A stretch of 56,529 bases of DNA from a virus, in the IMG/VR virus record IMGVR_UViG_3300032291_001333, positions 1 through 56,529 of that record; one strand, 5' to 3'. The notes beneath the pieces are model-generated. The model was given only the letters and a program-made list of their open reading frames with translations. It was not told where the DNA came from and searched no databases. The translations under genes were made by a program, and so were the position numbers. The stretch's first letter is position 1, and every line of letters begins with the position of its first letter. Below are positions 32,906 to 38,359 of this stretch, piece after piece.

Positions 32906-33223
32906 TTAGAGCTTCTTGGTATCCACAACAAGTAACTCCCGCTCAATCAGTTCTCGCATAGTGCTTCGATGAGCCATGTCCCAGACGATCCGCTTCTCCT
33001 CGCGGGTCATGCTCTTGCCGTAGTCGATCTGGTAGTGGCAGGCGCAGCATAGAGCGGCCAGCATTGAATCGGAAGTCTTGTGCCCTATGCCCCTGCCATC
33101 CGATAGCTGGTTGCTGTGGGAAGCCTGCGTAGAGCCTTCCAGACCGCAGTTCTGGCAGGGAAGGCTTGCCACCGCTCGGCGCAGTTTCTCGTTGCGATAG
33201 GGCTTTTCTTTAGGGATTAGCAT
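32906..33223 (-). CDS. HNH-like nuclease with Cys zinc site
   Basis: A 105-aa protein. LPCQNCGLEGSTQASHSNQL and LAALCCACHYQIDYGKSMTR give a Cys-pair zinc site with a central His, like the small HNH-type DUF1364-family or Ref-like nucleases. The start at 33223 (MLIPKEKPYRNEKLRRAVAS) is chosen by family-like length; it overlaps the glycosyltransferase by 14 nt. It is the last gene before the terminator. Confidence 0.75.
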   Translation of the reverse strand: MLIPKEKPYRNEKLRRAVASLPCQNCGLEGSTQASHSNQLSDGRGIGHKTSDSMLAALCCACHYQIDYGKSMTREEKRIVWDMAHRSTMRELIERELLVVDTKKL

Positions 33224-34079
33224 GATTGCTATAAACCATTCCGTAATTGTTAATGCCAGCAGGCACATGCGCCTCAGGTTTTCTGATCAATTCATTTTTG
33301 AAAACCTTGTAATTCACATGATGATGCCAACGATTAAATCGCCAAACCACGCGAGCTACATCAGGATGCAAATCAGCAAGCATTTTGCTTTTTGGCATTG
33401 TTCCTTCTGCAGAATAAAAGTCTTTAGTGTTACCACCAGACATTCTTTGCGTAGTAACTTTGCCGCACAAAAACGCATTGAATTGAACAGTTACCAATCC
33501 ATCCTTTAATACACGCAAAGAAAGATCAGTATCCTCGTTATATCTGCCTCGCCATCTGTAAGGAATATCATTTCTAATCAATAAACATGAATATATGCGG
33601 GTGTTTAGAATGAATGCTGGCAATGCATCGGTTGATTTTGCAAACGAATAATAATTTGGACCTGCTATTGCTACGTTTTCATACCGCTCAACAAAATCTT
33701 CCATTGCACGAAGCGTAGCGCCAGTTCGAACTTCGTCTTTGGTGTTTTTGTATAATCGGTGAAACGCATCGAGGTTGTCGTCCATTACCCAATGCCATTT
33801 AGCGCCAGATGCGACTGCGTGATCCCAGCAGAAATTCCTTGCTGCGCCGGGACCCACACTTTTTGTTCTGCCAAGATCATCGCAAGTATCGTATTGATTC
33901 AAGTATTCTTCAGGCAAAACCATGATCTTATTCCGGCGAATTACTGAGGCATATTGCTCAAGCTCATGGCCCTCAACAACAATGAAGAAAGGAACTCCCA
34001 TCGCATCAAGCGCCTTTGCGGTAAGCCTGCTCTCCCACCGACCTTTTGAGACTATGTAAACAGGATGTTTAGGATTCAT
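33210..34079 (-). CDS. TET-associated-type glycosyltransferase (TAGT)
   Basis: A 289-aa GT-A enzyme. MNPKHPVYIVSKGRWESRLT is the typical N-terminus, VPFFIVVEGHELEQYA follows, and WHWVMDDN (about residues 95-102) supplies the metal-binding acidic site. RGRYNEDTDLSLRVLKDG is the catalytic-region motif. The family glycosylates hydroxymethylated bases in phage DNA when a TET/JBP oxygenase is present. I see no such oxygenase here, nor a dC-hydroxymethylase. ATG 34079 overlaps the preceding gene by 11 nt. Confidence 0.82.
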   Translation of the reverse strand: MNPKHPVYIVSKGRWESRLTAKALDAMGVPFFIVVEGHELEQYASVIRRNKIMVLPEEYLNQYDTCDDLGRTKSVGPGAARNFCWDHAVASGAKWHWVMDDNLDAFHRLYKNTKDEVRTGATLRAMEDFVERYENVAIAGPNYYSFAKSTDALPAFILNTRIYSCLLIRNDIPYRWRGRYNEDTDLSLRVLKDGLVTVQFNAFLCGKVTTQRMSGGNTKDFYSAEGTMPKSKMLADLHPDVARVVWRFNRWHHHVNYKVFKNELIRKPEAHVPAGINNYGMVYSNHANP

Positions 34080-34293
34080 AATCAACCCACAATCCACGTT
34101 GACGCTTTTCTAACTCTGGAAACCAAATAGCTTTTGTTTTTGGCGTTAATTTTTGACCAATCAATGTTGCAAACTTTTCCAAGTCCTCTTGATTTCTGAA
34201 CCGTATATTTATTGCTGCAAACGGTTTTTTTTCATCTTGGACAAATTCAGGCATTCCTACCCACTCACCGCGCCAATCAAAATTGTTTTCCAT
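34069..34293 (-). CDS. Small conserved phage protein (MPEFVQ type)
   Basis: A 74-aa protein, MENNFDWRGEWVGMPEFVQD, with FRNQEDLEKFATLIGQKLTP and AIWFPELEKRQRG. I recall this family as a frequent neighbour of phage ParB or glycosyltransferase genes; the function is unknown. It overlaps the TAGT gene, so the two are likely made together. Confidence 0.7.
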   Translation of the reverse strand: MENNFDWRGEWVGMPEFVQDEKKPFAAINIRFRNQEDLEKFATLIGQKLTPKTKAIWFPELEKRQRGLWVDYES

Positions 34294-35355: not shown

Positions 35356-35481
35356 GAGGGTTTCCTATACCAACCGAGGGAGTAAGGGAGCAGAGGAGCC
35401 AAAACATCCCCAACCCATAATTAAATGAGTTAGGGAGTCTTGGCGTCACCAACGTCGGTCGTTCGGTCGCTGTTGTCGCCA

Positions 35482-35553
35482 GAAGAGAGAGCATCATCTC
35501 TTCATAAATCGGGGATTTTGACGTTGATGCGTCAAGTCTGTCTGCCCCCGATT
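35482..35553. other. Chain of hairpins
   Basis: A 7-bp perfect stem, GAAGAGA-N8-TCTCTTC (35482-35503), is followed by an outer stem, AATCGGGG/CCCCGATT (35507-35514 with 35546-35553), enclosing an inner stem, TTGACG/CGTCAA (35518-35535). All arms are perfect. It could be RNA structure on either strand or origin structure. Confidence 0.6.
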
Positions 35554-35744
35554 GACTGTCAGTTTTATCCTGTGATGTTATCTAGGGAACCTTCAGCCAA
35601 CTTCCGCAGATTGCCGTTCAGCAGCCTTCTTGTCGGCACGACCAATACGAGTAAGAACGTAACGGGGATGCGATCCGGACAGTTTGCACTGGAGCCATCT
35701 TCTCTACCTCCCCTACACCGATAAAACCTCGTATCGGCCCGTTC

Positions 35745-35898
35745 AAAAGAAAAAATCATACGGCTTGGGTTTCAGGTCGCGGTGATGATGGGCGCAAGCA
35801 ATACGAGCAGTCGCTCATCAAGACCGAAACCCAATGCGTATGATTTCGTCGTATTGCTTTACGCTCCACCGCTGAAGCGACCCGTCTTTTTCACAGGC
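35745..35898 (-). ncRNA. Candidate structured non-coding RNA or attenuator
   Basis: From the promoter at 35905-35933, transcription would start near 35898. The RNA holds two crossing pairings. In one, 35796-35806 pairs with 35849-35859 (11 bp, perfect: AAGCAATACGA/TCGTATTGCTT). In the other, 35753-35773 pairs with 35826-35846 (21 bp with 2 mismatches), extended by 35775-35778/35822-35825 and 35783-35788/35815-35820. The long stem runs straight into ATTTTTTCTTTT, so it ends like an intrinsic terminator at about 35745. The two pairings cross and may be alternatives. No known RNA family is recognised. Confidence 0.6.
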
Positions 35899-35904
35899 AG
35901 GTGA

Positions 35905-35933
35905 ATCTTAAATCGTGCATCACCCAATGTCAA
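35905..35933 (-). promoter_or_regulatory. Strong leftward promoter
   Basis: On the minus strand -35 is a perfect TTGACA (35928-35933), the spacer is 17 bp, and -10 is TAAGAT (35905-35910). It reads toward the structured RNA and, beyond the T-run, toward the early operon at 35355. It lacks the GGAAAGGCG element of the other early promoters. Confidence 0.75.
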
Positions 35934-35973
35934 GCAGTATCGGGCAATAACTACCAACCACTTATGACCAAAA

Positions 35974-35988
35974 ACGAAATCATTTCGT
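35974..35988 (-). terminator. Small hairpin at the primase-gene end
   Basis: ACGAAAT-N-ATTTCGT is a perfect inverted repeat overlapping the stop of the Toprim gene. It is followed on the minus strand by TTTTT. It is AT-rich with a tiny loop, so it is at best a weak terminator; it might instead be a protein site. Confidence 0.4.
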
Positions 35989-36828
35989 ATTTGACATCAA
36001 CTCTCGCAGCAACTTGACCGCCGCCCAAAGCCCTTCCCGCTGGTAATAGTCGTTGAAATCGTCGCCCTCGACCGGAGACATCAACCAAGGCAGTCCCGTC
36101 GATCTGGCGGCGTTCTGGCCCGTCCTTGAGGCATCATTGTCGGCCACCACAACCCGATCACCACCGATCCGCTCGGCCACGTAGACCAGATTGGATGCCG
36201 AAAAGCATACCCACACCTCGCAGGACTTGTGCATGGCGTCGGCAGCAGCCTTGATGGACAGCGCCGTCGCGTAGCCTTCGCAGAGGATTTTGACTGCCGG
36301 ATACCGCTTCTTCCCCATGATAAACACCGCGCCCTTCGTTTCGCCTCCGGCCAGAAACTTCTTCTCCCCATGACCGTTGATCCGCTGGATGCTGGTCAGC
36401 TTGTTGGTCTTGAAATTCCTCATCGGGACGATCAACTCGTTCTCCAATACCATCGCAATCGCGTCAGGAAAGCCTTTGCGCTCAAGATAGGGGTGATTTG
36501 AGGGCTTGGCCCTACCGACCGCGCTCTGAGCGATTATGGAGGCCCTGTGACGCCTTCCGGCCTCTTCCCTGTCGGCCTTCTCCCGCTCCATCCGCAGCTT
36601 CAGGGGATCGACAATTTCAATCCGCTCTCCCTTCGGAGGCCATGTCGCGTAGCCTTCCATCGTCGCCCAATTCCGGACGACTCCCTTGCTGCCGTCGAAC
36701 AGGTAGGCCCCGTTGCGCTTGCGAGGCTTGTCCGTGGTCGGCACCCGGTGCCACCTTCCATCTGAAATCAGGTGATTGATGCTCAGCCCGTAGGCTGATG
36801 CATGTTGTAAAAAGTCCATGTCAGCCAT
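35980..36828 (-). CDS. Toprim primase-like protein
   Basis: A 282-aa protein. The N-terminal 120 residues match the beta-rich start of phage primase-like Toprim proteins (ISDGRWHRVPTTDKPRKRNG; GAYLFDGSKGVVRNW). Toprim motifs follow: ILCEGYATALS (E184) and VVVADNDASRTG (D230, D232), then EGDDFNDYYQREG. The enzyme would make primers or unwind with the neighbouring helicase. It lacks an obvious zinc finger. It overlaps the helicase gene by 8 nt. Confidence 0.85.
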   Translation of the reverse strand: MADMDFLQHASAYGLSINHLISDGRWHRVPTTDKPRKRNGAYLFDGSKGVVRNWATMEGYATWPPKGERIEIVDPLKLRMEREKADREEAGRRHRASIIAQSAVGRAKPSNHPYLERKGFPDAIAMVLENELIVPMRNFKTNKLTSIQRINGHGEKKFLAGGETKGAVFIMGKKRYPAVKILCEGYATALSIKAAADAMHKSCEVWVCFSASNLVYVAERIGGDRVVVADNDASRTGQNAARSTGLPWLMSPVEGDDFNDYYQREGLWAAVKLLRELMSNTK

Positions 36829-38359
36829 CCGCCAGTTTAGTGAATTTCTGCTTAGCTACCCGGTGCCGGTAAGCAATCAACATGCGTCGGACATTATTCC
36901 GGACGACCTCACGCGGCACAACATTCGTGTCGATGTGATACGCGGACCTAGGCCAAGTCCCGTAGACGTTCCGATACTGAGCCAAGGCAAACTTCTCAGC
37001 GCCGAAACGGTCAGCCCCTTTGATGTCTGCAGCGATGTGGCAAATTTCCTTCCAGACCAGCTTCTTGTCCTTCTGCCAGTCGTTCTTTGCCTTCATCCAC
37101 ATGTCGAGTTCGGACAGTTGACCGGCCCGCTCCTCGACCGTGCTGCGACGGACAGGACGCTCAGCGCCGCATGCAGGGCAAATCTTCTGCGTATGAATAA
37201 ACCCGCAGGAGTGACACTTGCTGTCCTTCTTCTCTTCGGGAGTCTTTTCCTTGCGCAGCTTTGCATCCAAGGCACCTGAGTCAAGTTCGGCAATACCGTT
37301 CTCAAATACAGTCTGCGTGTCATCCATAAACCGCAGCATGTTGCCCGCGTGATCCAGCCACAGAGCGAATTCCTTGCCGGGGTGCGAACGCATCACACGG
37401 CCTAGCTGCTGGATGTGACCCGACAGAGACTTGCGATACGGACGCGCACCGATGCCAATCTTGATGTCCGTGACGTCAAAGCCCTTCGCCAGAGCCTCGC
37501 AGGAAATCAGCCCGACAATCTCGGAATCAGCCTTGCGAAACTCTTCGATCAGTTCACGGCGGCGATCATTATTCCCATCCTTGTAGCTAATCTGCTGGAA
37601 GTTAAAGCCTCGCGCCTGAAACTGACGGCAAAGCTCCTCACCGTGAGCGACGGTCGCAGAGAATGCAATGGTCTTCGCCGGTCCACCGAAATACTGCGAC
37701 GACTTCTGCATCCACTCTTCTACAACGTCACCGACGATCTGGATGCCGCGCTTCTCCATCTCAGCGTCCTTCCACTCGCCGTCGAACTTCACTTCAGCGC
37801 CGGTCATGTCAATCTCTTTTGCCGCATAGGCTTTCAACGGCACCAGCCAGCCCTGCTCGATCAGGCGATTGGTCGTCGTGCTGTTGACGACATTGGTGAA
37901 TATTTTGTCCATGCCCTTCGTGAATGGAGTCGCCGTCAGCCCGATGACGCGGATGTCAGTTCCCTCGACAAAATTCAGGACGCTCTGATACAGCGTGTGA
38001 CACTCGTCCCAAAGCACAAGCTTCGGCATGTCCTCGATCTTGCGCCGCGCCAGAGTCTGCGCAGATACAACCTGAATATGCTCCCACGGACGCGCCCGCC
38101 AGTGGTCGGCCTGCATGACGCCGTGCTGAATGCCGTAGCGGTCCAGCGTAGTCGAAGTCTGGTCAACCAGTGCCACTCGGTCGCACACAAAGAATGCGCG
38201 TGAAGATTTTTTCTGAGCTTCACCAAGCAAGTGAGACGCCGTTACCGTCTTACCGCTGCCTGTCGGAGCCACCAAAATCTGTGACTGATGACCCCCACGA
38301 AACCCTTCCCTCAAATCCTCTACGCTCTTCTCTTGATAGTCCCTCAAATCAATAATCAC
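36821..38359 (-). CDS. DEAD/DEAH-family SF2 helicase with zinc ribbon
   Basis: A 512-aa protein. Walker A is APTGSGKT (31-38), motif II is WDECH (117-121), motif III is LTATPF (141-146), and motif VI is QQLGRVMRS (about 325). Residues about 385-402 form a zinc ribbon (CHSCGFIHTQKICPACG). It resembles phage UvsW/RadD-like helicases that act in replication, recombination and restart. The GTG start at 38359 has GGAG upstream. It follows the ParB-like gene and the palindromic element 38392-38441. Confidence 0.88.
   Translation of the reverse strand: MIIDLRDYQEKSVEDLREGFRGGHQSQILVAPTGSGKTVTASHLLGEAQKKSSRAFFVCDRVALVDQTSTTLDRYGIQHGVMQADHWRARPWEHIQVVSAQTLARRKIEDMPKLVLWDECHTLYQSVLNFVEGTDIRVIGLTATPFTKGMDKIFTNVVNSTTTNRLIEQGWLVPLKAYAAKEIDMTGAEVKFDGEWKDAEMEKRGIQIVGDVVEEWMQKSSQYFGGPAKTIAFSATVAHGEELCRQFQARGFNFQQISYKDGNNDRRRELIEEFRKADSEIVGLISCEALAKGFDVTDIKIGIGARPYRKSLSGHIQQLGRVMRSHPGKEFALWLDHAGNMLRFMDDTQTVFENGIAELDSGALDAKLRKEKTPEEKKDSKCHSCGFIHTQKICPACGAERPVRRSTVEERAGQLSELDMWMKAKNDWQKDKKLVWKEICHIAADIKGADRFGAEKFALAQYRNVYGTWPRSAYHIDTNVVPREVVRNNVRRMLIAYRHRVAKQKFTKLADG

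What the first reader, a model, noticed from the sequence alone, without database searches (positions are those of the whole stretch)
35745..35933. Compact locus with promoter, crossing stems and T-run: a new RNA or attenuator
Seen: a perfect TTGACA-17-TAAGAT promoter, then a predicted RNA with an 11-bp perfect pairing crossing a 21-bp stem (order A-B-A'-B'). The second stem ends directly in ATTTTTTCTTTT. The short gap between A and B makes it hard for both to form fully. They may therefore be alternative folds: an early anti-terminator-like hairpin against a terminator hairpin that controls read-through into the early operon. Or it is a stable RNA of about 150 nt.
Basis: partly seen in the sequence, partly recalled or inferred. 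Interest (0 to 1): 0.8.

Follow-up and report, generated by a model that had tools for sequence, protein, structure and literature searches.

The report
Modular pseudoknotted RNA family in phages
The spot is a real, previously uncatalogued RNA gene of environmental phages: a compact knotted RNA of about 150 bases with its own promoter, conserved by paired mutations in at least 42 viral variants and joined, mix-and-match, to several unrelated structured RNA segments downstream.

Summary
In detail: on the minus strand a TTGACA-17-TAAGAT promoter is followed by crossing pairings of 11 bp and 21 bp (19/21) and a T-run. The window matches no Rfam 15 family. Pattern scans of IMG/VR found 42 distinct homologues in uncultivated viruses; none was recognised in bacterial, plasmid or isolate-phage collections. 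Covariation is strong: 94% of 1,620 pair cells form standard pairs (38-53% when slid), 24 of 39 pairs change on both sides, and each RNA's A pairs with its own A' (z -15.7). Both crossing stems are conserved and share no nucleotide, so they most likely form one pseudoknot, not alternative attenuator folds. Two further loop pairings exist (K well supported, F suggestive). The promoter sits at a fixed distance, and strand-specific G-U tolerance points to RNA. The T-run is probably not always the end: in nearly every relative another conserved structured RNA starts within a few bases. In nine it is Rfam RF02932; in the window it is an unlisted ~330-nt module ending near 35400. These 3' modules reshuffle against the 5' module (24 changes on its tree). 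Best reading: constant 5' domain of a modular early phage ncRNA, about 495 nt here. Transcript ends and function are untested.

The parts
35905..35933 (-). sigma-70-type promoter TTGACA-17-TAAGAT; -10 ends 7 nt before hairpin h1
   Evidence: across the 42 homologues the mean best promoter score is 9.1/12 against 7.3 shuffled, and the -10 hexamer ends 7 nt before h1 in most of them
35745..35897 (-). conserved 5' RNA module (~150 nt), the finding itself
   Evidence: covariance model R1: 120.4 bits, E 2.4e-23 (the window is one of the model's own training sequences); 42 distinct sequences aligned; pair counts
35881..35897 (-). hairpin h1 (CCTG/CGGG); loop GAAAAAG
   Evidence: 3 of 4 pairs with double changes, 92% paired; coordinates
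35862..35879 (-). hairpin H2 (CGCTT/GAGCG)
   Evidence: 4 of 5 pairs with double changes
35867..35870 (-). K: H2 loop bases pairing with K' 35784-35787 (pseudoknot 1)
   Evidence: all 4 pairs have double changes, 95% paired
35784..35787 (-). K' partner of K
35849..35859 (-). A (AAGCAATACGA), pairs with A' 35796-35806
   Evidence: cognate against non-cognate z -15.7, 0/5000
35796..35806 (-). A' (TCGTATTGCTT), in the loop of hairpin E (pseudoknot 2)
35790..35816 (-). hairpin E (GAG/CCC columns in the window, GAGC/GCTC in most relatives), holds A' in its loop
   Evidence: 3 of 3 pairs with double changes in the family, 86% paired
35823..35846 (-). B 5' strand (lower, upper and extension)
   Evidence: lower B 8 of 9 pairs with double changes; z -12.3
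35753..35773 (-). B' 3' strand, plus extension 35781-35783
35745..35756 (-). T-run ATTTTTTCTTTT; possible partner F' of the h1 loop (F 35889-35892) and/or partial terminator
   Evidence: F:F' permutation z -4.8, 0/5000, but only one-sided changes in the alignment: suggestive
35400..35740 (-). 3' RNA module (type 6), same module in L028, L034, L120; GNRA-type hairpin; ends in terminator-like hairpin 35436-35407
   Evidence: 25 pairs with double changes among 4 sequences; terminator-like site
35980..36828 (-). Toprim primase-like gene immediately upstream (context)
   Evidence: PF13362, E 3.2e-10
36821..38359 (-). DEAD/ResIII helicase gene (context)
   Evidence: PF04851, E 4.6e-20

Best explanation
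Shown by sequence comparison: a phage RNA gene whose first ~150 nt fold into a conserved domain with crossing pairings (A with the loop of hairpin E, the H2 loop with K', long stem B), preceded by a conserved sigma-70-type promoter for leftward transcription. Also shown: a second conserved structured RNA module follows directly, and 5' and 3' modules are exchanged between phages at the T-run. Inferred: transcription passes the T-run at least part of the time, so the window makes an early ncRNA of about 495 nt (35897 to about 35400). The domain then acts as a constant, stable 5' handle (RNase resistance, protein binding or RNA assembly), while the interchangeable 3' module carries the phage-specific activity. 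The T-run is a structural joint, perhaps pairing with the h1 loop, and perhaps also a leaky terminator giving short and long forms.
For: 42 distinct homologues in viral contigs. Covariation with pseudoknots: 94% paired, 24/39 pairs with double changes, 0/500 shuffles, slid controls 38-53%. Cognate pairing tests. G-U 76 against A-C 21 cells, pointing to RNA on this strand. Promoter at fixed distance. RF02932 lies directly downstream in L013, L032, L041, L043, L044, L045, L047, L054, L061. Other 3' modules covary too: type 6, 25 pairs; type 2, 16; type 3, 15. Module labels need 24 changes on the 5'-module tree, e.g. the window/L006/L002 clade (96%) carries three different 3' modules. Scans seeded on the 3' modules alone rediscovered divergent 5' modules L120, L125-L128. 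In L051 and L047 the U-run is interrupted while complementarity to the h1 loop is kept.
Against: No transcript data exist. The stem plus U-run has the form of an intrinsic terminator in every member. In L033 the 5' module is followed at once by a protein-coding frame instead of an RNA module, so the module can stand alone. F:F' pairing lacks double changes in the alignment and may be partly due to relatedness. The handle-plus-effector role is inferred only.
Confidence: 0.6

Rival explanations
1. A stand-alone ~150-nt phage RNA that ends at the T-run (true intrinsic terminator); the downstream RNA modules are separate RNAs made by read-through from the early operon.
For: Stem B plus T-run has terminator form in all members. 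L033 has a protein frame directly after the T-run. In Acidovorax phage AP1 an RF02932 RNA sits after the primase with no 5' module and little room for a promoter.
Against: A structured RNA module begins within a few bases of the T-run in nearly all members, with no promoter between. The U-run is interrupted in some members (L047, L051). The terminator hairpin would have an unusually long, knotted loop.
Confidence: 0.23
2. A transcription attenuator: folding of the leader decides whether polymerase stops at the T-run or reads into the 3' RNA module and the early genes.
For: The conserved unit is promoter + leader + stem + U-run, and it is placed before different downstream RNAs. It lies within the early operon, co-directional, next to primase and helicase genes.
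Against: A/A' and B/B' share no bases, so there is no classical terminator/anti-terminator competition. All pairings are conserved together. No ligand, leader peptide or constant downstream gene was found.
Confidence: 0.13
3. The structure acts in DNA (replication origin, primase loading site or recombination site) and the RNA is incidental.
For: Position beside primase and helicase genes in the window and several relatives.
Against: G-U pairs outnumber A-C mismatches 76 to 21 on this strand, the promoter is conserved at a fixed distance, and elsewhere the neighbouring genes differ.
Confidence: 0.04

Closest known systems
Betaproteobacteria-1 RNA (Rfam RF02932)
   Same: Lies directly 3' of this module in at least nine homologous loci, same strand; also follows the primase gene in Acidovorax phage AP1.
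   Different: The window has no RF02932 match. The 5' module is outside that model. RF02932 also occurs without it in phages and bacteria.
GOLLD and ROOL large ornate phage RNAs
   Same: Phage-encoded non-coding RNAs with several pseudoknots and unknown function; GOLLD also has one constant and one variable half (PMC12286853).
   Different: No Rfam match to either. Here the constant part is at the 5' end and 3' modules are exchanged. No tRNA island is seen. Oligomer formation is untested.
Intrinsic-terminator attenuators
   Same: G+C-rich stem next to a U-run in a leader with its own promoter.
   Different: No overlapping alternative pairings; the stems coexist by covariation; the downstream element is usually another RNA.
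HK022 put RNA (antitermination leader)
   Same: Structured RNA in a phage early transcript (PMC9378689).
   Different: Different length and fold as far as known (own knowledge); put RNA does not end in a stem plus U-run. Not tested by model.

Membership tests
Any Rfam 15 family | covariance-model score above the gathering threshold | tested here: not met
   window: no match; permissive scan gives only eukaryotic chance hits below gathering score; in homologous loci only RF02932 (downstream) and tRNA match
Betaproteobacteria-1 RNA (RF02932) | match to the 120-nt model | tested here: not met
   no match in the window; met only by the downstream module of other members
GOLLD / ROOL | match to their Rfam models | tested here: not met
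GOLLD / ROOL | RNA-only homo-oligomers | not testable with these tools
   needs native gel, mass photometry or cryo-EM
Transcription attenuator | terminator-like stem followed by U-run | tested here: met
   B' followed by ATTTTTTCTTTT; conserved in all 42
Transcription attenuator | an anti-terminator pairing that competes for bases of the terminator stem | tested here: not met
   A/A' and B/B' occupy different nucleotides; the one further candidate looked at, GGUCG/CGACC, shows no covariation
Transcription attenuator | read-through fraction changes with leader fold | not testable with these tools
   needs in vitro transcription or Term-seq
Conserved pseudoknotted RNA | compensatory changes in both crossing helices | tested here: met
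HK022-type put RNA | cis antitermination by nascent RNA bound to RNA polymerase | not testable with these tools
   resemblance of position only

The most novel reading that the evidence does not exclude
Environmental phages carry a combinatorial RNA gene family: one constant, promoter-bearing, multiply pseudoknotted 5' cassette is swapped by recombination at its U-run onto at least six unrelated structured 3' RNA modules, giving large early ncRNAs. The fast-changing A/A' pair may set specificity, for example for intermolecular assembly of these RNAs.
Probability: 0.5. Interest if true: 0.85.

Novelty: new variant of a known kind. Interest (0 to 1): 0.72.

Why it matters
It adds a well-supported structured RNA family to phages, with homologues only in uncultivated viruses so far. 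It shows that Rfam's Betaproteobacteria-1 RNA often sits as one domain next to a longer, modular RNA. Domain shuffling of non-coding RNAs by phages is rarely documented (own knowledge) and gives a direct route to function: swap modules and see which activity follows. The alignment and covariance model make the family searchable and the fold testable.

Tried and rejected
Chance hits removed: L004 (inside an SSB gene), L005, L012, L014, L015, L019, L026, L030, L062 and all 44 genome contigs pattern hits L063-L106, one of which (L104) looks like RNase P RNA; none of those listed here matches model R1. L003, a 49%-identical primase relative, lacks the RNA. tRNA/tmRNA: none. GGUCG/CGACC pairing: not supported by covariation. 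399 Burkholderiales genomes with model R1: none, but no positive control exists there. Related isolate phages Shpa, AP1, DMCA and two Manatee Spring phages: no R1 match. An 'anti-X' partner for the direct repeats of RF02932-type RNAs: not found. Apparent antisense matches of R1 are echoes of the palindromic stem.

Full report
Observation. The window is a 56.5-kb IMG/VR virus record. On the minus strand, 83 bp after the stop of a Toprim primase-like gene that follows a helicase gene, the RNA begins; its promoter TTGACA-17-TAAGAT lies in that gap. No convincing open reading frame explains the stretch. No Rfam family matches.

Homologues. A 95%-identical primase relative, L002, carries the same ~190 bp at 86% identity. 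There A changed from AAGCAATACGA/TCGTATTGCTT to AAGTATAGA/TCTATACTT, and the base of B from AAATCATACG/CGTATGATTT to ACCCTTATACG/CGTATAAGGGT, while the rest is nearly constant. Core patterns in viral contigs and two scans seeded on the downstream modules gave 42 distinct sequences, counting the window. The covariance model R1 recovers all of them at 87-141 bits, one per virus in the whole records tested; the sequences it was built from match by construction. The GTDB pattern scan returned only chance matches. Isolate phages and plasmids gave none, and 399 Burkholderiales genomes gave none. So the family is known here only from uncultivated viruses.

Structure. On the 42-sequence alignment the pseudoknotted structure has 94.0% of cells paired, against 38-53% when partners are slid. 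It has 24 of 39 pairs with double changes and 170 such cells, and no shuffle of 500 reaches any of the five measures. Helices: h1; H2, whose loop K pairs with K'; lower and upper B with a 3-bp extension; and E, whose loop holds A'. Because A varies in length, A:A' was tested by cognate against non-cognate duplex energy in 28 divergent members: -13.3 against -5.4 kcal/mol, z -15.7, 0 of 5,000 permutations. The same test gives z -12.3 for lower B, -5.3 for the region spanning K, and -4.8 for the h1 loop with the U-run. The last is suggestive only: the aligned columns show one-sided changes, although L035 and L051 have GCAAAAG/CUUUUGC where most members have GAAAAAG with a plain U-run. G-U cells outnumber A-C cells 76 to 21, which points to this strand and to RNA rather than DNA. 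The promoter is conserved: mean score 9.1 of 12 against 7.3 shuffled, with the -10 element ending 7 nt before h1 in most members. The RNA therefore starts at about 35897.

Alternative folds or pseudoknot? A/A' and B/B' share no bases and are conserved together. If the composite 5' helix and B lie side by side, a short A-B linker at one end and a very short linker before B' at the other would be natural, with the long loop before A' spanning the length. This is geometric inference, not a model. Intermolecular A:A' pairing is not excluded.

What follows the T-run. Alignments show conserved non-coding sequence for hundreds of bases. In nine loci it is RF02932, same strand, starting a few bases after the T-run. 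In the window it is another module shared with L028, L034 and L120, with 25 double-change pairs, ending at a terminator-like hairpin 35436-35407. Two other module types also covary. Clustering of the first 200 nt after the T-run gives seven recurring module groups plus six singletons. On the tree of the 5' module the labels need 24 changes (least possible 7; shuffled mean 27.1). The window, L006 and L002 form a 96%-supported clade with three different modules, and L031 and L044 have almost the same 5' module but different 3' modules. RF02932 also exists without the 5' module, in bacteria, in phages and in the cultured Acidovorax phage AP1 directly after its primase. L033 has the 5' module followed at once by a protein frame. 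Hence the modules are separable and appear to recombine at the U-run.

Interpretation. Best reading: constant 5' domain of a modular early phage ncRNA, about 495 nt in the window. The U-run is a joint and perhaps a leaky terminator. What is shown: homology, structure, promoter, modularity. What is inferred: read-through, the handle/effector division, and any function. Rivals are a stand-alone 150-nt RNA and an attenuator. Nearest known things are RF02932 (often its 3' partner) and, in style, GOLLD and ROOL, phage RNAs of unknown function that form RNA-only cages (PMC12286853). The family itself is not in Rfam. The paper searches found no description, but the library lacks most subscription papers, including (own knowledge) the one that introduced many such motifs, which was not held.

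Noticed in passing
window 35969-35993; L002 6380-6405: A ~25-nt near-perfect palindrome (CAAATACGAAATGATTTCGTTTTTG) right after the primase gene, present in L002 in the opposite orientation at the edge of an inserted gene; possible operator or recombination site.
   Followed up: partly
L002 6420-6908; L022 gene ending ~27 bp before the RNA promoter region: A 162-aa protein family with no Pfam match sits directly upstream of the RNA in two otherwise different phages.
   Followed up: partly
L013, L041, L044, L047, L053, L054, L125, L129, L130 and AP1 (L143), 3' of the RF02932 match: A 7-14-nt direct repeat flanks the last hairpin of RF02932-type RNAs; its sequence differs between phages but the two copies change together (cognate score 6.2 against 2.0). 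No complementary partner found.
   Followed up: partly
L143 11856-11979 (Acidovorax phage AP1): RF02932 RNA directly after the primase gene of a cultured phage, 93 bits; a tractable system for these RNAs.
   Followed up: partly
window 33210-34097: TET-associated glycosyltransferase (PF20691, E 7e-47), suggesting hypermodified DNA bases in this phage.
   Followed up: no
L033, minus strand, right after the T-run: A 124-aa frame begins at the T-run in place of the 3' RNA module; its start looks GIY-YIG-like by eye, but the first 71 residues gave no Pfam match.
   Followed up: partly
G256 (loci L107, L113, L114): One Burkholderiales-order genome has three RF02932 matches on different contigs (two over the cut-off), without the 5' module.
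   Followed up: no
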